Below are positions 1 to 28,192 of a DNA stretch of 33,403 bases, in pieces (within the stretch, counting starts at the first letter, position 1; each line of letters opens with the position of its first letter). The stretch spans positions 1-33,403 of the IMG/VR virus record IMGVR_UViG_3300020474_000058; one strand, written 5' to 3'. Origin of the DNA: a virus. The position numbers and the translations under genes were made by a program. Below the pieces are notes generated by a model, which worked only from the letters and a program-made list of their open reading frames with translations, had not been told where the DNA came from and ran no database searches.

Positions 1-3000
1 GTTCTACGTGAGGTAATGTGGGATGTTAAGTTTGGTGGTAACTATAAGACATACTCTGTTGCTAAGGGTTACATCACCAATGACTTCAATGGTAAGACAT
101 ATCCACAGATCATTCAAGATGTAGAAAGAGACGAGGTTGCAAAAGTATTCCAAGAAGTTAAGAACGTTGCAATGCAAGTTATCAAGAATGAAGCAGTTAC
201 TGTTACATCTGGTAATGACTTAACACAGATCATTGACAATACAATCGTAGATGATTGGGATGAAGATGAACTACTACCTAAGTGTGGTTCAGCAGTCGCT
301 GCTGTTGACTCATTGATGGACATCATCATCGGAGCAATCGGAACTGATGCTGGCGTTGGTAATCTTAATGGTATACAAAGGACAACTGCTGATGGTGCAG
401 ATCCTGGTTGGAACACAGCACTCAACATACTATCTGCAACTGCAACATCAATTACAATTAACGTTGGTGCATCACCAGCGGGCGAACAATACGCCCATAC
501 ATTTGTTGCTGCACAGTCAGGTGCAGTTATATCTGGTGGTAACTATGATCATACATTTGTCAGTGCTTCAGCTGGTGCAGTCAATGTTGTTAACGGATCA
601 CAGATCACACCAGTCAATGCAACATATGATGCAATTACAGGTATAATGGTATTATACTTTGGATCTAAGCATGGCGTAACAACATCTGATCAATTATCTC
701 TAGATGATAATTCACTTACATTCACATGTTCTATGGATAACAATGCGTCTTCCAAGACATATCCTAGAACCAGTGATCCAATACAAGGACAGAATGTAAA
801 CCCAACTGCTGTTACAGATTACAGTATTAGTATTAACGTTGGTACATCACCATTGGTAGAATTCAATGTATCAAATGCAATCTACGATCAGACAACTGGA
901 TCTCTAGCATTAACTATCGGTAACCACAGTTTACCAACAGGTACATCAATCAGACTTAAGGAAGAGTCACTCATCTTTACATGTACTAAAGATCAGAACA
1001 AGACAACTCATGCATATCCTAGATCTGCTGGTAAGTACAGACCATCTGCATATCAGGATGGTAATTGCTCTGATGTTTGTGCAACAGTCAATGCTTTAAT
1101 TGATATTCTTTGCAATACCATTAATGATGGTAATTTGAATAGTCTACCTCCACTAAGCAATGGTGAGTGGGATTGTGCTAATGTTCGTTCATCTATTGAA
1201 ACTCTATTTGATATTCTAAATGATGCAATCAATGGAAAGACTCTTGCTGGTCTACCTCCACTCAATACAGGTGACTTTACAATCAATAACGAAGCATCCA
1301 AGTGTTTCCGTGATGTCACATACATCGTTGATGCTATTGTTAATGACCTTAGAGTTGGTGGTAACATCAACAGTATACAGGCTGGTGAAGCATACTACGT
1401 TGGTAACAGTCTAGAATATATTGACGGGGAGAAGACAGAGACACTAGACGCATGGAACTATGTTGGTGAGATGGCAACTGCTGCCATGAGAAACTTTGAT
1501 GTTCTTGCATATAATTGTTCAACAACTAGTGGTTCTGCTATCGTTGATGTCAATGATACCCGTGGTATTATTATTGGTATGAGTGTCAAGGAATATGACG
1601 ACACTGATCCAGTAAATCCTGCATATGTCAATGGACTGTTACAGGATAGTTCTACACAGTTAGTTACTAACATACCATCAGGAACATATGTTAAGAGAAT
1701 TGTAAGTAACACACAAATTGAACTTGGTGTTAATGGTTCTAGATTGAATGAAGGTAACACAGTCAACGCCTTACAAACAAGTACAACAACAGAACTATAC
1801 TTTGTGTATGAGAGAGGTATCTGGGCTGACACATTACCTACAACTGTAACTGTAGGACCTGAGTCAAGTAATCCTGATGTTATTCAAGACACAACTACAT
1901 CAGCATCAAGTAGAGAGTGTGCAGGAACAGCAAATGCTATTGAAACATTAGTTGGTAACATTACTACTATTATTAATAGTGGTCTTGGCACAGTTACTAG
2001 ACAAGAACAGACAGTCAACACTGCACTTCTTGCATCCAGAGCAACAGTGTTTACGATTGACGTTACTGGTGCAGGTCCTTCAAACCCACATGACTTTGAA
2101 ACTGGTACACCAGTCAGACTTGTACCACGCCCTCGCTTTGATCAGACAACAGGTAGATATGTTGATGTTGACAAGCGTCTTGTTAGATTACCTAACGGAT
2201 TTGAAACTAACAGAACATACTATGTAATTACACCTGGCAGAAGAACCGAACCAGAAAACTATGGTTCAACAACATTCTTTGATGGTAACGATCAAACAAG
2301 ATTAATGCTTGCAACATCTAAAGAAAATGCTGCTGCTGGTATTTACATCTACGCATCTGAAACTGATGCAATTGATAAGGATGTTGAGATTGATCTTTAT
2401 CAATTTGTAATTGATGATTCATATGATCTACACAACTACAAAGCATCACTAACAAATACAGTTAATGCTGGTATTATGACTGATGTGGCACACATCTTTG
2501 ATATACCATCTAACTCAACCACAGCTCAGAAAGCATTTATCAGAGCAATTGAAGGTGGTGTGTTACCTCTAGTATCAACAGCATATGCTAATGATCCACA
2601 GGTTGCAGTCACAAATAGTAATGATGCAAACTTTGGTAGAATTAATCCTAAAGTTGAATTCTTTACTCGTTACCAGAACAATAAGGTAGTCACATTACAT
2701 AAGACAAAGGCAGATGCAATCAACAATGTAAACCCAATTACATTTGGTGCAGGACAGACTGGCGTTGTATTCAATCTATTTGGTAACAAACGTCGTTCAC
2801 CAATGCAGTATGATCCTGGTTTTGCTAGTGCTGCATCACCAGAGGGTAAGTGGTTTATTAATTGTAAGGATGAAGTAACTGGTGCACAAACCACTCCTAC
2901 AGATAATATATTCTGGAGACTTAATCAGAGTGATTACTCTGATAGACAGAGATCTACTGATATGTGGTATCAACGTCTTACAGATGATCGTGATAAGGAT

Positions 3001-6000
3001 GAAAGAACATACAAACTTCGTCTTGTTATTCCTAAGTATCTTGAGAATGCAAGAGATCCAATCAATGGATTTGTAATGAAAACAAGAACTGACGATACTC
3101 GTAAGTTAGTTCCTCAGAAGATTTTACTCAAACCAGTTGTTGGTACAGTATATGGTGCTCGTTTTGAGAACCCAGTCAATGCTGGTGAATATCTTGGTGA
3201 TACAACTGGAACATATGATCCATACAAGAGAGATACAACAGGTGCAGGAATTGAATACCGTGCTATGGCAAAGTTTGTATCTGGTGTTCAAGCAACAATT
3301 CAATCTGGACGTAAAGTTAAGGACATATTAGATGATAGTATAGAATATACAGAATTAACAGTCTTTGACCATGGAATTGACACTGTTAATTTTCCTGGCT
3401 TGAGAAATGAGATATTTACTACAGTCAAGATTACTTCACCACAAGGTGGTATCTTTGTAACTAGCAAGGTAGACAACACTGCAAATGCAACAAATTCAGT
3501 TTCATTTGCTGGTAATTCATCAGGTCTTGCAAATATTCATGCTTATTACACAGTAGATGGTGATCATTATATTATAATCAAAAATATTAGATCTGGTACA
3601 CTAGAGTATAGTGAGTTTGCAAACACTAGATTCACTCAAGGCACTGTCTTTGCTGACATGCTAGAGGATCAGGATATGGGCAAATCGCTACCTCTAAAAA
3701 CACAAATTGCAAAAAATAATCCCCAGTTTTTCTACAAGCAAAACGGTGCGAATGTTTACACAGTCACACCTGGCGATAGAATACAAGATAGTGCTGGTGT
3801 TGAATACTATGTTGATAGTGTTGAGGATGTTGGAGTTATTGAAGATACATTCTACGTCTTCGGATATGAAACATTACAGAAACGTATCTCAGGTCAGCAA
3901 GATGGTATCTACTATCTAACTGCATTGCGTGGTAATATTTCTCCATTCCCAACTGGTGCTGGTGTAACTAATAACTTCAAGAAGTTTAAGTTCTCACAAC
4001 CAGTTAGCAAACTATATCCTCTAAACTATAGAAACGATCCCCTTTGGTTTACTAAGTCTGGTACATCACAACTAGAGAAAGATTACTATGCTGGATTGAT
4101 AGATCCACCATCAACATTCTCTGCTGCTGATAACTATACACATGGTCTTGTATATGTTAACGACTTCAAGGGATCAACAACTAGAGAGATGGTTGATGAT
4201 CTTACAGAGCAACCAGCATTCTTGACAAATACTTATGATATTAAAGCACAGACAGGTAATGCTACATCTGGATCAGAGGATCGTTTAATTCCTATTGGTG
4301 GTAGTGGTGAAGTATCAATATCAGATACGAGATATTATATTGAATTAAGACGACCATCTATTGCAAGAGCAGGAAACCACACATTTGAATATCTCGGTTA
4401 TGGTCCTGGTAACTACAGTACAGGTCTACCAATCAGACAAGAAATCGTTCTAACACCCGACGAAGATTTCTATGCACAGTCTAAGAAACAGGATGCTGGT
4501 ATTGTATTCTATACTGGTATCAACTCACAAGGTGACTTGTATATTGGTAATAGAAGAATTAATGCTATTACTGGTGAGGAGACATTTATAGATGCTGCTG
4601 TACTAGCAGACGATGGTGACGAAGATGATACAATAGGAGGATTAGTTACTACATTTGACACTCCTGTAACATTCAACCAGAATATTACAGTTGTTGGTGG
4701 TGACGGACAGTTAGTAAGTAACTTTGAGTCTCCTGTAGTTATATCTGTACAAGATGGTGATTTCATACAACAGAAGGATGCTTTAATCATACGTTCAAAT
4801 GTAGATAGCACAGAAAATGATCTTGGTCAAATTGAGCAAGATGAAGGATTAGATAGAACTTCATTCTCACCTCCTACTGCTGGTGATATCACTCTCAGCA
4901 AGAACACAATCAAATCTGCTGTATTCCAATTCAATGCTAGAGGAAATGGTCAGAGATATCTATTCCAGACACATACCATAGGTGGTATTGCTTCTAACAT
5001 TACACCAAATCAATCTCAATTGATTGCAAGTGGTGGATCAAGAATTAATACTAATCAATTTACAACTTATGCTGGTGTATTACCATTACCAGGTGATGTA
5101 TTACTTAAGGGATCTGAGATAGGTAAGAGTGGTTCTATTGGTTGGATATTATCTAACTACTTCTCACAAATTCCTAACATTCAAATTGACAATATCATAT
5201 TTGATGGAACTAATGTTGTCAAACTAGAGTTTAGAGATTTTAACACTGGTGTTGCAATAACAAACCAAGAGATTGGAATTTCAAGTGGATCACAAATTAG
5301 AATTAAGAACTTCTACTTTGATCCTAGGTTAAATCTAACATGGCAAGTATTCAGTAAGCCTGGTGATGCATTCCAGACATCAAATAACTACGTTCATTTC
5401 CAAGTTATTGATCAGATCCCACAGTCAACTAGTCCATGGGAGACAATCATTGCAGGAACTGCACAAGGTGCTGTTGCTCCTACTATTGAGTTCTCTAACT
5501 CTAATTTCAAGGAAATTGGTGTAATTGGTGGTGAATCATTAAGAACAGAGACAGAAACTATTGGTGATTATAAGTTAGGTGTTAACACAGTTGCAAGATC
5601 ACCACACAGTTCATATACAAATTCATTTGTAAGTTTAGAAACTGAACCTCGTGCAAACTTAGATGTTGTTGGTACAGCATTTATCAGTGGTAGGACAACT
5701 GCAGATTATTTACAGCATACAAACTTTGCTGATCGTGATAAGACTGATGTTGATAACGCATTCTTAGTTGGTGGTGATAGTGCATTCCCTAATGATCAAA
5801 GTGTCTTTAGAGTTGCAACTACAAATAGTGGTCGTGTTGGTATCAATATAAACAATACTCTATTAGATAGAGCACTCGTTGTTAATGGTTTATCTAGATT
5901 TACTGATGATGCTAGATTTGAGCATGACATTGAAGTCAATGGTGATAACGGTGTAATTGCTGAGATCAGAACATCACAGACAACAGGAACATTTAACTTA

Positions 6001-9000
6001 ATAGATGATGCTACATTTGTTGGCACATTAAACTTAGGTAGTGAAGTTACAACTGCATACTTATTCAATGACAGCACAGCAGATCAGTTTATACATCTTG
6101 GTCGTTCATCTGAGCATAGTAATATATGGTTAGGTGTAACACCTGATAGCACTGGTGCAAATATTTCTAAGGTAGAAATTGGTGGTGCATTTGCTAACAC
6201 TAATGAAGACTTATCATACACCAAGATCAAGACTAGAAACTTGAGAATTGATGGTGATGCATGGTTAGGATTCCGTAAGGGACTTGGTGAAACCACATCA
6301 CTTAAATCACAAGCATCACAGGTTGATTTCTTCTCTAACACTGGTGGTCCTTCAATCATCAATTTTGCAACTAATGCATCTGAAATTAACATTGCTGGAC
6401 AGGGTGGACAAACTACCATTAACAACCAGTTAGAAGTTATTGCATCTGCTAAGTTCAATGGTGATATCCATATGTGTGGTGGTGTTGCATCATTTGCATT
6501 TACTGGTGGAAGAGCACAGTTAGGAACAGATATAACCGCACATGAAGATGGTATTATATCTACTGCATTGTTCAATAAGAATATTGATATCTTAAATGTT
6601 CTTGTCAAAGGAACAAATGAAGAAGGATACAACCAAATTGATACTGCTGGTGCAGGACAATGGGGTGGAACATCGTATCAAAATACAGTCAATACTGGTG
6701 GATCAGTTGAACCCATCATTCTACCAGCAATATCTGGAGATGAATACTATCTACCACTTAAATTTGAACCAGTCAAAGCAAATGGTGATCCATATTTTGG
6801 AACCAGTGATTACATCATAGTTGATAGTGCAGTTGTTGGTACAGGTTCATCAGCAACAGGACATCCTGAGATTCTACAGATTACAGAACTCACAAGGATT
6901 AACGAAGCACCATACTACATTAAAGTCAAGCGTCAACCATTTGGTGCATTTGGTGGTGTATTAAGCAATCATGTTGATACTACACCAATATACAAAGTTA
7001 ATGTACAGTTTGATGCTACATGGACAGAGCAAGCACTTGATAATGATACCAGTGCAACTGATTCAGTATATCTCTCAGAGTTTGGTGGTAGTCTAACAAA
7101 CAATGATTATGTTATTATTGATAGAAACGACTCACCAAAAGTTCCAGAATATATTAAAGTCATCAGTCCTCTAGAGCAACAAGTACAGAAGTTTAGAATT
7201 TCTAATTGTGCTGATCCAGATGAGGATGTATTCGTAGTTAATTCTGTAACTGGTGAAGTACAAATTGGTAATCCAAATATACCAGGATCAGTTTTATCAG
7301 TCAACTCATCACTTATCATGGATGGTGGTTGTGGAACTCTTGGCACGACTCAGTTTACTGGTGATGCAAATGCTCAAACAAATGTAATTACTAACATACA
7401 GGTTCTAACTTCTGGTAAGACAATTGCTGATATTCAGAAAGGAGATCTTGTCACTGTTATTACAGATGGGTCACCTATAAAGATGACTCAAGATACTGCT
7501 GTTGACTTCGTGTTTGGCGGTGCTGTTTACTTAACAGATAAGATCATTGGATCATCATCAATAACTGGTGGTACATTTAAAGCAGAAAGAAATGAGAGAA
7601 TAACAGCAACTGATGGTGGTAATAATGTAACATTTGATGTTGATACATGCACAGGTACAACAACAATTGGTACACATGCTGGTAGATTTGATCTTAACCT
7701 AGCATGGTCAAGTGCTGCTGGAATTCTTACAAATGCTAATTTACCAGCAGCATTAAATGATGATAACATAATTGCGTATAGTTACTATGCAGATCCACAG
7801 ACAATACAGGGTAATGGTCCTAATACAACTATTGTATCAACTGCAACTGGAGGAGGAGTATTACAGATAACAGTGCAGCAACTTGGAGAAGGAACTGGTA
7901 AGTTTGCAGTTGGCGACCTAATTGCTGTAGGACCTCTAACATCATTCTCTAGCAACACTGGTCAACTTGAATTTATGACAATTACTGGTGTCGTTGATGC
8001 AACAAATGTGATCACTGTGAACAGAGCACAGGAAGGCACAGTTGAGATGAGTCATCAGGCTGCTGATGTTGTTAGAAGAATTATCAAACATGAGAGACAA
8101 TCTCTAGTAGTTGATGCTCAGATTAGACAAAGACAACAAGGTGGAGTTCCAACTGACTATCTCTCTGTAATTCTAGAGAGAGGATATATCTCACAATCTA
8201 AACTTGATTACAGACAGTGGTTGAGATTTAGAAATACATCTACTGGCACTGAAATTCTCACCATCGTACAAGGCAGATTATATGGTAAGAACCATATGAC
8301 CATAATGGATGAGCAAATAGGTGATGGTGCTAAGTCATATAGAGAGGGTAGTCTGAATGTCACAGATGCACTAACATTAAGTGGTGGTAACTTCACCATC
8401 TTTGATAGTGTCAAACAAACAAAACTATTCCAGTTTGTTAATGATGACGGACATGCTGATCACCAAGGTATATTGTATTGGGATGCTGCTGTTACTGCAA
8501 GGGGAGAGATCCGATTATATCCAACATCTTGCCCAGAAAATGTTCTGTTAAGTTTAAACTGTGATCCATCATTCTCAGTTGATAACTCTGGTAATGTAGT
8601 TGCTCAGAATTCATTAACAGTCACAGGTACTGCAGTATCTGTTCCTACAAAGGATGATGTATTCTCAGTACAAAATCTTGGAGTTGGTGGTGGTAGTGAG
8701 TTCACTGTTAACAGAGATCGTTCAATTGATGCATTTGGATTACAAAACTTCACTACATCAAGTGGTGCAAGACATGCAAGATACTTATCCGCAGCATCAC
8801 CAGAAGCAGATCTAACATTGATTCCAAATATAGTATACATGGTCAATGTTCAGAATACACAAACATTAATCGTTACATTACCACCAGCACCACAAACAGG
8901 TGACATTGTAAGAATGATTGATGTAGGTGGTAACTTGAAGTTTGACACAACATTAGTCGTCAGAACTCCTGAGACTAGTGGCACACCAATACAGGGTGAT

Positions 9001-9168
9001 GCAATAGGAACACTATTTGGAGATAGATTAACTCCATATCCATCTGGTGAACTTGTAGTACAAACTCCAAATGCAGGATTTGCATTAATATATCTTGGTT
9101 CAACTGATAGTAATGATCAAATAGGAATCCCAACCAGCGTACAGGGTTGGTGGTTAATGGAGGTATAA
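1..9168 (+). CDS. Giant virion structural protein, tail/fibre type (5' partial)
   Basis: Very large structural protein of the kind encoded near the tail fibres of T4-like marine phages. The frame is open from base 1; the first ATG (16) has no spaced ribosome-binding site and the residues there look internal, so I treat the gene as cut by the window edge, with 3,055 residues visible. The N-terminal third holds two repeat types. About five copies of a short helical module have a cysteine near the start and an L-x-x-I core (around bases 280-345, 1072-1155, 1172-1262, 1300-1380, 1915-1980). Two copies of a ~50-residue unit read YDxxTG...FTCxxDxN...YPR (about 619-775 and 880-1030). The remainder is Asn/Thr/Gly-rich, beta-structured-looking sequence without catalytic motifs. 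It is followed three bases later by collar-domain genes, which supports a tail-fibre or baseplate role. The family level is sure, the exact position in the virion is inference. Confidence 0.85.
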   Translation, partial: VLREVMWDVKFGGNYKTYSVAKGYITNDFNGKTYPQIIQDVERDEVAKVFQEVKNVAMQVIKNEAVTVTSGNDLTQIIDNTIVDDWDEDELLPKCGSAVAAVDSLMDIIIGAIGTDAGVGNLNGIQRTTADGADPGWNTALNILSATATSITINVGASPAGEQYAHTFVAAQSGAVISGGNYDHTFVSASAGAVNVVNGSQITPVNATYDAITGIMVLYFGSKHGVTTSDQLSLDDNSLTFTCSMDNNASSKTYPRTSDPIQGQNVNPTAVTDYSISINVGTSPLVEFNVSNAIYDQTTGSLALTIGNHSLPTGTSIRLKEESLIFTCTKDQNKTTHAYPRSAGKYRPSAYQDGNCSDVCATVNALIDILCNTINDGNLNSLPPLSNGEWDCANVRSSIETLFDILNDAINGKTLAGLPPLNTGDFTINNEASKCFRDVTYIVDAIVNDLRVGGNINSIQAGEAYYVGNSLEYIDGEKTETLDAWNYVGEMATAAMRNFDVLAYNCSTTSGSAIVDVNDTRGIIIGMSVKEYDDTDPVNPAYVNGLLQDSSTQLVTNIPSGTYVKRIVSNTQIELGVNGSRLNEGNTVNALQTSTTTELYFVYERGIWADTLPTTVTVGPESSNPDVIQDTTTSASSRECAGTANAIETLVGNITTIINSGLGTVTRQEQTVNTALLASRATVFTIDVTGAGPSNPHDFETGTPVRLVPRPRFDQTTGRYVDVDKRLVRLPNGFETNRTYYVITPGRRTEPENYGSTTFFDGNDQTRLMLATSKENAAAGIYIYASETDAIDKDVEIDLYQFVIDDSYDLHNYKASLTNTVNAGIMTDVAHIFDIPSNSTTAQKAFIRAIEGGVLPLVSTAYANDPQVAVTNSNDANFGRINPKVEFFTRYQNNKVVTLHKTKADAINNVNPITFGAGQTGVVFNLFGNKRRSPMQYDPGFASAASPEGKWFINCKDEVTGAQTTPTDNIFWRLNQSDYSDRQRSTDMWYQRLTDDRDKDERTYKLRLVIPKYLENARDPINGFVMKTRTDDTRKLVPQKILLKPVVGTVYGARFENPVNAGEYLGDTTGTYDPYKRDTTGAGIEYRAMAKFVSGVQATIQSGRKVKDILDDSIEYTELTVFDHGIDTVNFPGLRNEIFTTVKITSPQGGIFVTSKVDNTANATNSVSFAGNSSGLANIHAYYTVDGDHYIIIKNIRSGTLEYSEFANTRFTQGTVFADMLEDQDMGKSLPLKTQIAKNNPQFFYKQNGANVYTVTPGDRIQDSAGVEYYVDSVEDVGVIEDTFYVFGYETLQKRISGQQDGIYYLTALRGNISPFPTGAGVTNNFKKFKFSQPVSKLYPLNYRNDPLWFTKSGTSQLEKDYYAGLIDPPSTFSAADNYTHGLVYVNDFKGSTTREMVDDLTEQPAFLTNTYDIKAQTGNATSGSEDRLIPIGGSGEVSISDTRYYIELRRPSIARAGNHTFEYLGYGPGNYSTGLPIRQEIVLTPDEDFYAQSKKQDAGIVFYTGINSQGDLYIGNRRINAITGEETFIDAAVLADDGDEDDTIGGLVTTFDTPVTFNQNITVVGGDGQLVSNFESPVVISVQDGDFIQQKDALIIRSNVDSTENDLGQIEQDEGLDRTSFSPPTAGDITLSKNTIKSAVFQFNARGNGQRYLFQTHTIGGIASNITPNQSQLIASGGSRINTNQFTTYAGVLPLPGDVLLKGSEIGKSGSIGWILSNYFSQIPNIQIDNIIFDGTNVVKLEFRDFNTGVAITNQEIGISSGSQIRIKNFYFDPRLNLTWQVFSKPGDAFQTSNNYVHFQVIDQIPQSTSPWETIIAGTAQGAVAPTIEFSNSNFKEIGVIGGESLRTETETIGDYKLGVNTVARSPHSSYTNSFVSLETEPRANLDVVGTAFISGRTTADYLQHTNFADRDKTDVDNAFLVGGDSAFPNDQSVFRVATTNSGRVGININNTLLDRALVVNGLSRFTDDARFEHDIEVNGDNGVIAEIRTSQTTGTFNLIDDATFVGTLNLGSEVTTAYLFNDSTADQFIHLGRSSEHSNIWLGVTPDSTGANISKVEIGGAFANTNEDLSYTKIKTRNLRIDGDAWLGFRKGLGETTSLKSQASQVDFFSNTGGPSIINFATNASEINIAGQGGQTTINNQLEVIASAKFNGDIHMCGGVASFAFTGGRAQLGTDITAHEDGIISTALFNKNIDILNVLVKGTNEEGYNQIDTAGAGQWGGTSYQNTVNTGGSVEPIILPAISGDEYYLPLKFEPVKANGDPYFGTSDYIIVDSAVVGTGSSATGHPEILQITELTRINEAPYYIKVKRQPFGAFGGVLSNHVDTTPIYKVNVQFDATWTEQALDNDTSATDSVYLSEFGGSLTNNDYVIIDRNDSPKVPEYIKVISPLEQQVQKFRISNCADPDEDVFVVNSVTGEVQIGNPNIPGSVLSVNSSLIMDGGCGTLGTTQFTGDANAQTNVITNIQVLTSGKTIADIQKGDLVTVITDGSPIKMTQDTAVDFVFGGAVYLTDKIIGSSSITGGTFKAERNERITATDGGNNVTFDVDTCTGTTTIGTHAGRFDLNLAWSSAAGILTNANLPAALNDDNIIAYSYYADPQTIQGNGPNTTIVSTATGGGVLQITVQQLGEGTGKFAVGDLIAVGPLTSFSSNTGQLEFMTITGVVDATNVITVNRAQEGTVEMSHQAADVVRRIIKHERQSLVVDAQIRQRQQGGVPTDYLSVILERGYISQSKLDYRQWLRFRNTSTGTEILTIVQGRLYGKNHMTIMDEQIGDGAKSYREGSLNVTDALTLSGGNFTIFDSVKQTKLFQFVNDDGHADHQGILYWDAAVTARGEIRLYPTSCPENVLLSLNCDPSFSVDNSGNVVAQNSLTVTGTAVSVPTKDDVFSVQNLGVGGGSEFTVNRDRSIDAFGLQNFTTSSGARHARYLSAASPEADLTLIPNIVYMVNVQNTQTLIVTLPPAPQTGDIVRMIDVGGNLKFDTTLVVRTPETSGTPIQGDAIGTLFGDRLTPYPSGELVVQTPNAGFALIYLGSTDSNDQIGIPTSVQGWWLMEV

Positions 9169-26825: not shown

Positions 26826-26914
26826 CAGTTGAATTAGTGTCACAATGACCCGTAATATTCACTGTAACAATCCACAATTCTGCTTATTACCGACTATAAT
26901 AAGTATATACAAAC
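26821..26914 (+). promoter_or_regulatory. Dyad/-10 promoter module, copy 10 (long spacing)
   Basis: AGTGACA (26821-26827), ten bases, TGTCACA (26838-26844). The -10 TATAAT (26895-26900) is 50 bases away instead of about 30; a second half-site-like TGTAACA (26863-26869) lies closer, 25 bases from the -10. ACAAAC at 26909-26914. This outlier may use two tandem sites. Confidence 0.62.
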
Positions 26915-26927
26915 AAATTTAACAAAC

Positions 26928-27107
26928 ATGTTTTTTTACACAGATTCAAACGATTATCCAAGAACCCAAGCGGGTCTACTAGCAAGATGCTATGACGAAG
27001 TAGTTGCAGAAGCAAAGGACACAGGCGACTTCCCAATGTATGGCGAAGAAATGCTTAGACAGTCCGCACAGTGGAAAATGGAAGACATTTTAAGGGAGGT
27101 TGCTTAA
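26928..27107 (+). CDS. Hypothetical small protein
   Basis: 59 residues, acidic and helical after residue 10 (MFFYTDSNDYPRTQAGLLAR, then YDEVVAEAKDTGDF). No family recognised. It starts behind the ACAAACAAATTTAACAAAC leader. GGGAGG near its end is the ribosome-binding site of the next gene, which begins directly after the stop. Confidence 0.65.
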   Translation: MFFYTDSNDYPRTQAGLLARCYDEVVAEAKDTGDFPMYGEEMLRQSAQWKMEDILREVA

Positions 27108-27305
27108 ATGTCATTTTTCAAACACGTTTCACTACATAAGTACGACCTAACCGACAAGGGTGTTACACAGGCATGCTACGACGAGATGAGAGCAGACGGT
27201 TACGACATAGTAATTACAGAGAAAGAAATGCAAGTGCTTGCCAGACACAGGTGCGAAGAGTTTAAGAACTACATGAGACCACTATTTCACGGAGCAGAGG
27301 ACTAA
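27108..27305 (+). CDS. Hypothetical small protein
   Basis: 65 residues, mixed charge, helical (DKGVTQACYDEMRADGYDIV). No family recognised. Good Shine-Dalgarno upstream; one-base overlap with the next gene (TAATG). Middle gene of a three-gene unit. Confidence 0.65.
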   Translation: MSFFKHVSLHKYDLTDKGVTQACYDEMRADGYDIVITEKEMQVLARHRCEEFKNYMRPLFHGAED

Positions 27306-27538
27306 TGCCAGACAACACTTTTATATTTGACACAGTGTGGGAAGAGTACCGACATGAACACGGTTTCACAGTTGATGAGATGAACGAACATTTTATGTTC
27401 TCTGATGACCGTAGCATACATGACGAACTCATGGAACGGGTAGAGCATACTAAGTGGCAAGAAGCACAACGTATGGCATGGATGCAAGGCGAAGCACCAG
27501 AGTATAAGAGACGAGTCCCCGAAGACTGTCCATTTTAG
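27305..27538 (+). CDS. Hypothetical acidic protein
   Basis: 77 residues, acidic, His/Met/Trp-rich (HEHGFTVDEMNEHFMFSDDR, then KWQEAQRMAWMQ). The clustered His and acidic residues might bind metal but no known motif is present. It is the last gene before the long non-coding stretch at 27.54-27.93 kb. Confidence 0.65.
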   Translation: MPDNTFIFDTVWEEYRHEHGFTVDEMNEHFMFSDDRSIHDELMERVEHTKWQEAQRMAWMQGEAPEYKRRVPEDCPF

Positions 27539-27559
27539 AAACAACTAGGCAGTAAGAAC

Positions 27560-27795
27560 CTTAAATGACCGTGTATTGAACGTGGTGGTTGTAACGTAAG
27601 TCCTAACATCTTGACCCGACCAGTCAACAGTGCACAGACCTGTAACTCTGATAAGCATGGAATTTGCTAGGGGAGATCGGTCAATCTCCCTGACAACCAC
27701 ACAAAACAAAGCAGTGTCCCTAAGTCTAAAGACGCAGCGACGGGGACACTCTTAACCCCACCCCCTGACAGTGTTTGTAATGTTGGGGGGTTTTT
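27560..27795 (+). ncRNA. Candidate structured non-coding RNA
   Basis: The 387 bases between genes (27539-27925) hold no convincing frame but are richer in G+C and full of stems: GTGGTTGT/ACAACCAC (27585-27592 and 27693-27700) enclosing TTGAC/GTCAA (near 27611-27627) and a perfect GGGAGAT/ATCTCCC hairpin (27671-27690); then AGTGTCCC/GGGACACT (27713-27720 and 27743-27750) with an inner GTCT/AGAC; then a terminator. The arrangement, a multibranched fold ending in a terminator, suggests a small RNA. The 5' end is not defined and no known RNA family was recognised. Confidence 0.5.
27754..27795 (+). terminator. Terminator of the candidate RNA
   Basis: ACCCCC (27760-27765) pairs with GGGGGT (27786-27791), or alternatively AACCCC (27754-27759) with GGGGTT (27787-27792), followed by a T-run through 27795. 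The loop is long, about 20 bases. Confidence 0.6.
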
Positions 27796-27858
27796 AAGGG
27801 GTTGCCGAGCGATGGGACTCCTAACCCTTTCCTAACCTACAAAAGTATCCAAACGAGA

Positions 27859-27866
27859 GATAAATA
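27859..27866 (+). promoter_or_regulatory. T4-type late promoter
   Basis: GATAAATA, one base from the T4 late consensus TATAAATA and identical to the element at 31904. It lies about 60 bases upstream of ATG 27926 and probably starts the late transcript of the oxygenase/baseplate block. Confidence 0.7.
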
Positions 27867-27925
27867 TAATTGAAAATGAAATTTCAAAAACATCAAAACC
27901 CAAAAAATTTTCCTGGTAAAAAATC

Positions 27926-28192
27926 ATGAAAAAAGTCGCACACCAATTCTTTGAAAATGATGGATTAGATTATGAAGACATGTTGAATGACTTTGATAAT
28001 TTCTGTGACCAATTTGAAGACCGTGCATCACAAGCATATCATAAAGGAGATCAAAATAATGGAAGAGTTGCTAGAGAAGCTGAACGAGCAGGAAAAGACA
28101 CTCCTATGGCTGTCAGAGAAATTGAACAACTTGGAGTCACGGATGGAGAAATTGGGCAAACCATCATTGATGTATCACCGTCCGACTTCTGA
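27926..28192 (+). CDS. Hypothetical acidic protein overlapping the next gene
   Basis: 88 residues, first gene after the late promoter. The N-terminal ~45 residues are acidic and well composed (FFENDGLDYEDMLNDFDNF). The C-terminal half is shared, in another frame, with the coiled-coil gene at 28059 (134 bases of overlap) but still reads sensibly (AREAERAGKDTPMAVREIEQ). No family recognised. No strong Shine-Dalgarno. Confidence 0.55.
   Translation: MKKVAHQFFENDGLDYEDMLNDFDNFCDQFEDRASQAYHKGDQNNGRVAREAERAGKDTPMAVREIEQLGVTDGEIGQTIIDVSPSDF

What the first reader, a model, noticed from the sequence alone, without database searches (positions are those of the whole stretch)
27539..27925. Candidate structured RNA between the small-gene cassette and the late operon
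Seen: 387 bases without a plausible frame, noticeably richer in G+C than the flanks, with an outer helix, a perfect 7-bp hairpin, an 8-bp closed stem-loop and a terminator, then a late promoter. Inference: a phage small RNA or a regulatory element at the boundary of two expression programmes. I do not recognise a known family.
Basis: partly seen in the sequence, partly recalled or inferred. Interest (0 to 1): 0.65.

Follow-up and report, generated by a model that had tools for sequence, protein, structure and literature searches.

The report
Modular structured RNA in marine cyanophages
The gap between two sets of genes in this ocean cyanobacterial virus encodes a real folded RNA, built from interchangeable parts that related viruses reshuffle, and it belongs to no listed RNA family; its job is unknown, but where it sits suggests it controls or protects the ends of viral messages.

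Summary
It has four parts. (1) A 'frame' helix, TAGGC...GUAAGUCCUA. (2) A small insert in the frame, module C. (3) A ~90-nt module B with four hairpins and a GACC/GGUC loop-loop contact. (4) A closing hairpin, J. A terminator, a short conserved element and a late-promoter-like site follow. Module B occurs in about a dozen IMG/VR contigs, partly at other genomic sites: 98.4% of pair cells are kept, 11 of 19 pairs change on both sides, and 0/500 shuffles reach that. Module C recurs in seven other contigs, inside the same frame or alone. Other phages, including Prochlorococcus phages P-HM1, P-HM2 and MED4-213, fill the frame with other modules (A, D-H). Rfam, GTDB genomes (two patterns) and the papers searched gave no match. 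Coding is excluded. Modules sit after stop codons before terminators, or just behind a -10 box. Energy is not unusual for modules B or C, but shape is strictly kept. Best guess for function: a cis element at transcript ends, working like exonuclease-resistant RNAs (confidence about 0.4). Rivals: a trans-acting RNA or a regulatory switch.

The parts
27546..27605 (+). Frame F: helix TAGG (27546-27549) / CCTA (27602-27605), with C27550-A27551 on the 5' side and GUAAGU (27596-27601) on the 3' side; begins 7 nt after the stop codon of the upstream gene
   Evidence: Same internal-loop signature GGC[A/G]...UAAG[A/U]CC with a changing outer helix in many phages (TGGG/CCCA, GTGG/CCAC, CTGG/CCAG, GACCTAGG/CCTAGGTC, AGAGG/CCTCT, ATGTAGGG/CCCTACAT); 24 distinct hits in 0.83 Mb of (partly redundant) loci against 1 in 1 Mb of random sequence
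27552..27595 (+). Module C, insert of the frame: GUAAG-AACC-UUAAAUGA-CCGUG-loop-CGUGG-U-GGUU-GUAAC
   Evidence: Found in seven further loci, inside the same frame (L125, L128) or free-standing with its own outer helix (L001, L123, L124, L126, L127); inner stem has two-sided changes at two pairs
27611..27627 (+). Module B hairpin a: UUGAC/GUCAA, loop CCGACCA
   Evidence: All 5 pairs change on both sides among 10 distinct relatives
27635..27650 (+). Module B hairpin b: CAGA/UCUG, invariant loop CCUGUAAC in 9 of 10
   Evidence: Two of 4 pairs with two-sided change
27654..27668 (+). Module B hairpin c: AGCA/UGCU, loop UGGAAUU
   Evidence: End pair AU/GU/GC/CG
27671..27690 (+). Module B hairpin d: GGGAGA/UCUCCC, loop UCGGUCAA
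   Evidence: Three of 6 pairs with two-sided change, 100% of cells paired
27618..27682 (+). Loop-loop (kissing) contact of GACC 27618-27621 (loop a) with GGUC 27679-27682 (loop d)
   Evidence: Pairs in 10/10 distinct sequences; L040 has GACU with AGUC, one compensatory change
27693..27703 (+). Unpaired A/C-rich tail ACAACCACACA
   Evidence: Similar tails follow module B in relatives and module A in L008 and L013
27714..27749 (+). Hairpin J: GUGUCCCU/GGGGACAC closing AAGUCUAAAGACGCAGCGAC
   Evidence: Same motif in 6 other loci, outer helix 5-11 bp; fold z -3.05
27760..27795 (+). Terminator-like G/C-rich hairpin (11 bp, 10-nt loop) followed by TTTTT
   Evidence: the standard scan missed it because the loop exceeds 8 nt
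27796..27866 (+). Separate conserved element AAGGGGUUGCCGAGCG...CUCCUAACCC and the late-promoter-like ATAAATA (27860-27866) of the next gene
   Evidence: Matches in ACG-2014, S-CAM4, S-RSM4, S-WAM2, S-B43 and other cyanophages, which have nothing like module B
27305..27538 (+). Upstream gene, 77 aa ending ...VPEDCPF, PHROG 27774, unknown function; last of three small genes behind a promoter-like site at 26871-26900
27926..28192 (+). Downstream gene, 88 aa, PHROG 10663, unknown function
   Evidence: relatives in 22 IMG/VR contigs

Best explanation
The interval encodes the structured 3' end of the three-small-gene transcript: frame F with insert C, then pseudoknotted module B, then hairpin J, then a terminator. 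It is one member of a family of modular RNAs of marine cyanomyoviruses, in which compact domains with fixed unpaired cores are exchanged between phages and set at transcript ends. SHOWN: the RNA structure and its conservation, the modular exchange, the absence of coding, the placement. INFERRED: it acts in cis. The compact fold (kissing loop, conserved internal loops) either blocks or steers the host's RNA-decay enzymes, or holds a protein that does. It thereby sets the life-time of the early/middle message and its 3' end during infection. It would work like exonuclease-resistant RNAs do, without being a member of any of their families.
For: Structure: module B 98.4% of cells paired, 11/19 pairs with two-sided change, 0/500 shuffles, and the signal collapses when arms are slid. 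The energy fold of module B alone gives the same four hairpins. Kissing contact 10/10 with one compensatory change. Module A, the commonest alternative insert: 7/9 P1 pairs with two-sided change, score 0.411 against 0.121 shuffled. Modularity: the same frame right behind the VPEDCPF stop holds C, A, D, E, F or G inserts in different phages. Tandem arrays of two or three domains: L040, L125, P-HM2, window. Placement at ends: after a stop and before a terminator (window; L040 with GUCCCC..GGGGAC-U7), or just behind a -10 box with the closing helix near the expected start (L093, L094, L098, L107, L124, L170). Neighbouring genes differ (uvsW-like, tRNA, small unknown genes). Context: one cyanophage raises host RNase E, and antisense cover is proposed to protect phage messages (PMC9692554).
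Against: No expression or decay data. Module B and frame+C are not unusually stable (z -0.10 and +0.09), so plain stem stability is not the point. The invariant loops (CCUGUAAC, UGGAAUU; UUUAAGUCGA in module A) could as well bind a ligand or protein for regulation. Modules A and B are usually single-copy per record, which is odd for a general message protector.
Confidence: 0.4

Rival explanations
1. Trans-acting non-coding RNA: the 3' end of the small-gene transcript is processed to a free, folded RNA of about 200-240 nt that acts elsewhere, for example by binding a host protein or RNA.
For: Usually one locus per record although its place in the genome changes; large, multi-domain and pseudoknotted; conserved unpaired loops; palindromic centres in hairpin J of four relatives could allow dimers.
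Against: Single modules (A, C, H) also stand alone as the 5' leader of different genes, which fits a cis element better. No promoter of its own was found in the window.
Confidence: 0.27
2. Cis-regulatory switch at the boundary of early and late transcription: an antiterminator like the put RNAs of phage HK022, a riboswitch, or the binding site of a phage repressor, deciding read-through of the terminator at 27760-27795.
For: It lies directly before the terminator and a late promoter; free-standing copies lie at the start of transcripts, where put sites lie; pocket-like conserved loops.
Against: No alternative pairing with the terminator was found. In relatives the 3' flank is changed altogether (other hairpins, early-type promoters) while module B stays. 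Downstream genes share no theme.
Confidence: 0.25
3. Coding or decayed coding sequence.
For: A 41-aa (+) and a 54-aa (-) open frame exist.
Against: Frames not conserved in relatives; lengths vary by 1-4 nt; the substitution pattern is compensatory.
Confidence: 0.02
4. An ordinary untranslated spacer with a terminator; the similarity is mere descent.
For: Thermodynamic signal weak.
Against: Two-sided changes in 11 of 19 pairs; the same module at different genomic sites with unrelated flanks.
Confidence: 0.02

Closest known systems
manA (RF01745) and wcaG (RF01761) RNAs of cyanophages
   Same: Structured, conserved RNAs carried by T4-like marine cyanophages, first seen in marine metagenomes (PMC2864571, PMC9964418)
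   Different: Those are single motifs in 5' UTRs of metabolic genes. The window and the 21 further loci scanned show no match to either family. The element here is a modular array at a 3' end.
GOLLD / ROOL ornate RNAs
   Same: Multi-domain RNAs with loop contacts; GOLLD occurs in phages and metagenomes (PMC12286853 abstract and own knowledge)
   Different: Much larger single architectures that form homo-oligomers. No Rfam match here, and domains are exchanged rather than one fold kept. Multimerisation here is only a guess from palindromes in hairpin J.
Exonuclease-resistant RNAs (xrRNA) of flaviviruses and plant viruses (own knowledge)
   Same: Compact pseudoknotted domains with fixed unpaired cores, in tandem, in untranslated ends of viral messages
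   Different: No sequence or family match; resistance not tested; host enzymes differ.
put RNAs of phage HK022 (own knowledge)
   Same: Phage RNA domains near the start of transcripts (compare free-standing modules A, C, H)
   Different: The window copy is at a 3' end; antitermination not tested; no sequence resemblance examined.

Membership tests
Any Rfam 15 family | Score at or above the family's gathering threshold | tested here: not met
   No match in window, L028, L034, L040, L042 and 15 further loci except one tRNA in L107; permissive searches gave only chance-level matches
manA / wcaG RNA | Covariance-model match | tested here: not met
GOLLD / ROOL | Covariance-model match | tested here: not met
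GOLLD / ROOL | Homo-oligomeric assembly | not testable with these tools
   Needs biochemistry or cryo-EM
Structured RNA (general) | Compensatory base changes supporting the helices | tested here: met
tRNA / tmRNA | ARAGORN hit | tested here: not met
Exonuclease-resistant RNA | Blocks an exoribonuclease in vitro or in vivo | not testable with these tools
   Needs a decay assay
put-type antiterminator RNA | Terminator read-through in cis through RNA polymerase | not testable with these tools
   Needs a transcription assay
Intrinsic terminator (27760-27795) | G/C-rich hairpin followed by a T run | tested here: met
   11-bp hairpin, z -2.23, then TTTTT; the loop of 10 nt is longer than the standard scan allows

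The most novel reading that the evidence does not exclude
Marine cyanomyoviruses carry a combinatorial system of exchangeable RNA domains (frame F plus inserts A-H, pseudoknotted B, hairpin J) set at transcript ends and reshuffled between phages. It would be a phage counterpart of viral exonuclease-resistant RNAs, or an RNA-based control layer, with no described equivalent in bacteria or phages.
Probability: 0.3. Interest if true: 0.85.

Novelty: new variant of a known kind. Interest (0 to 1): 0.66.

Why it matters
Cyanomyoviruses are among the commonest viruses of the ocean, and their untranslated regions are hardly annotated: in P-HM1 a hypothetical protein (PHM1_076) overlaps module A. A family of covariation-supported RNA domains that phages swap like cassettes, absent from Rfam and from the GTDB genomes scanned with two patterns, points to RNA-level control or protection of phage messages in infected Prochlorococcus and Synechococcus. 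It can be tested directly in the culturable pairs P-HM1 or P-HM2 with MED4.

Tried and rejected
Rfam by gathering score and by permissive E-value: nothing beyond chance. blastn of the region against 50,697 phage records: only the promoter-proximal leader and a 40-nt piece of module C matched; module B is absent there. The outer helix of the energy fold was rejected because relatives lack it. Coding was rejected. Locus L041 (pattern hit) is a coding coincidence. L106 (pattern hit for module A, in very G+C-rich sequence) looks like chance. 'Relatives' of a virus record cannot be drawn. Two GTDB scans, for modules A and B, found nothing; these were exact-pattern scans, so divergent copies could be missed. 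Literature: no description of this element in the papers searched. The P-HM2 infection transcriptome paper (PMC5082946) says intergenic reads were counted, but gave nothing on this interval in the passages read. Riboswitch for one metabolite: disfavoured because neighbouring genes differ.

Full report
WHAT THE WINDOW IS. The window is a 33,403-base IMG/VR virus record with tail-fibre, tail-collar, endonuclease-like and ferredoxin genes of a T4-like marine cyanophage. No tRNA and no Rfam family is present. The finding lies between three small genes (26928-27538, behind a promoter-like TCCACA-18-TATAAT at 26871-26900) and an 88-aa gene at 27926.

CHECK OF THE OBSERVATION. Two stem-loops (27671-27690, 27714-27749), a terminator-like hairpin with T5 (27760-27795) and an ATAAATA site (27860-27866) are there. 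G+C is 0.468 in 27539-27760, against 0.375 for the window, 0.445 upstream and 0.350 downstream. Folding energy is hardly special: z -1.76 for 262 nt, -0.10 for module B alone, +0.09 for frame+C. Energy alone would therefore not have settled the matter; relatives did.

RELATIVES. Loci were fetched through the downstream protein (22), the upstream protein (2, then 48 with an alignment), and patterns of the RNA itself. blastn and inspection split the interval into parts with separate histories. The promoter-proximal leader 27796-27925 is shared with many phages. Module B (27611-27702) is shared with about a dozen contigs. In two of them (L004, L006) it sits at the same place. In others (L014/L018, L019-L023 and longer copies of the same contigs) it lies about 1.4-2.1 kb upstream of the 88-aa gene, behind other genes. 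The upstream 40 nt are shared with MH319759 at 95% without module B.

MODULE B. A covariance model from 10 sequences finds the copies again and no further ones in 38 whole records. On the realigned set (10 distinct), 98.4% of cells are paired, 11 of 19 pairs have two-sided changes, and the covariation score is 0.501 against 0.176 +/- 0.029 in shuffles (0/500). Sliding the arms by 1-3 columns drops pairing to 30-46%. A hand alignment adds the loop-loop contact GACC/GGUC, formed in 10/10, with GACU/AGUC in L040. That is a single compensatory change, so this contact is supported but not proven. Loop b (CCUGUAAC, 9 of 10) and loop c (UGGAAUU) are nearly invariant.

FRAME AND INSERTS. Directly behind the stop of the ...VPEDCPF gene many phages carry a helix with the signature GGC[A/G]...UAAG[A/U]CC, its outer pairs changing freely. 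A search for the signature with three flanking Watson-Crick pairs gave 24 distinct hits in 0.83 Mb of loci against 1 in 1 Mb of first-order random sequence. Some hits overlap or are chance, and the loci are enriched by choice and partly redundant, so this is an indication only. The frame holds different inserts. Module C (window 27552-27595) occurs in seven other loci, with two-sided changes at two inner-stem pairs. Module A (GGCANGGGU-hairpin-UUUAAGUCGAACCUC) has a variable closing helix with two-sided changes at 7 of 9 pairs, score 0.411 against 0.121, 0/500. Other inserts are seen in MED4-213, P-HM2, L044, L049, L053, L062 and L075, and module H in about 20 contigs. Module A has matches in 24 of 36 records, with one clear copy in each; the few second matches are marginal. 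Scans of P-HM1 and P-HM2 for the frame found one clear array in P-HM2; the P-HM1 array was below that scan's helix limit but is known.

PLACEMENT. Arrays lie behind stop codons (VPEDCPF*, SDRH*...LSMGG*) and before a terminator or hairpin. Free-standing A, C and H copies lie just behind a -10-like box, so that the closing helix would start close to the first transcribed base (L093, L094, L098, L107, L124, L170). Genes behind these leaders differ.

MECHANISM. Placement at both kinds of transcript end, indifference to the neighbouring gene, tandem use of unlike domains, fixed unpaired cores and unremarkable folding energy together suggest a cis-acting transcript-end element. It would work through a specific three-dimensional fold, most simply on RNA decay. 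One cyanophage is known to raise RNase E in Prochlorococcus MED4, and antisense cover has been proposed to protect phage messages (PMC9692554); RNA domains would be another means. This step is inference. A free trans-acting RNA and a terminator switch remain open, at 0.27 and 0.25.

KNOWN OR NEW. No Rfam 15 family fits. Two exact-pattern scans of 84,980 GTDB genomes were empty. Known cyanophage RNAs (manA, wcaG, PhotoRC-II, glnA, CfrI, abiF; PMC9964418, PMC2864571) were either tested through Rfam without a match or lie in other contexts. The papers found do not mention it. I file it as a new variant of the known kind 'structured RNAs of phages', the new aspect being the exchangeable-domain design.

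LIMITS. Only 10 distinct module-B sequences exist in what was searched. No expression data were seen. The names A-K are mine.

Noticed in passing
27722-27741 (hairpin J); L004 2808-2827, L023 1174-1193, L040 3926-3945, L042 1606-1625: The six bases between the two GAC of hairpin J are a perfect palindrome in four distinct relatives (GCATGC, GAGCTC, AGATCT, TCGCGA), as in dimer-forming kissing loops; the window has GCAGC, which is not one.
   Followed up: partly
27796-27830: AAGGGGUUGCCGAGCGAUGGGACUCCUAACCCUU, conserved in many cyanophages upstream of the late promoter of the 88-aa gene; could be a hairpin, tRNA-like in wording; not explained.
   Followed up: partly
L095 and L107, next to module A: Another likely pseudoknot module (GCTAGTCCCTTTGGTGGTTTCAGACTAGGAGGCGATAGGAAACTAC) with changing stem arms in the two phages.
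   Followed up: no
L042 1511-1726 (P-HM1 PHM1_076): An annotated hypothetical protein overlaps the conserved RNA module A and may be a spurious gene call.
   Followed up: partly
L040 3590-3900, L125 9530-9760: Two or three RNA domains stand in tandem in these phages, with the frame TGGGC...UAAGACCCA used twice in L040.
   Followed up: partly
L030 275-327, L075 485-527, L170 1057-1094 and others: Module H (GGCG..AUCUCGC..UGCCAAUU..UAAGWCC), a compact element of about 40-55 nt in about 20 IMG/VR contigs.
   Followed up: partly
16-9168: A single open frame of 3050 aa at the left end of the window, next to tail-fibre genes.
   Followed up: no
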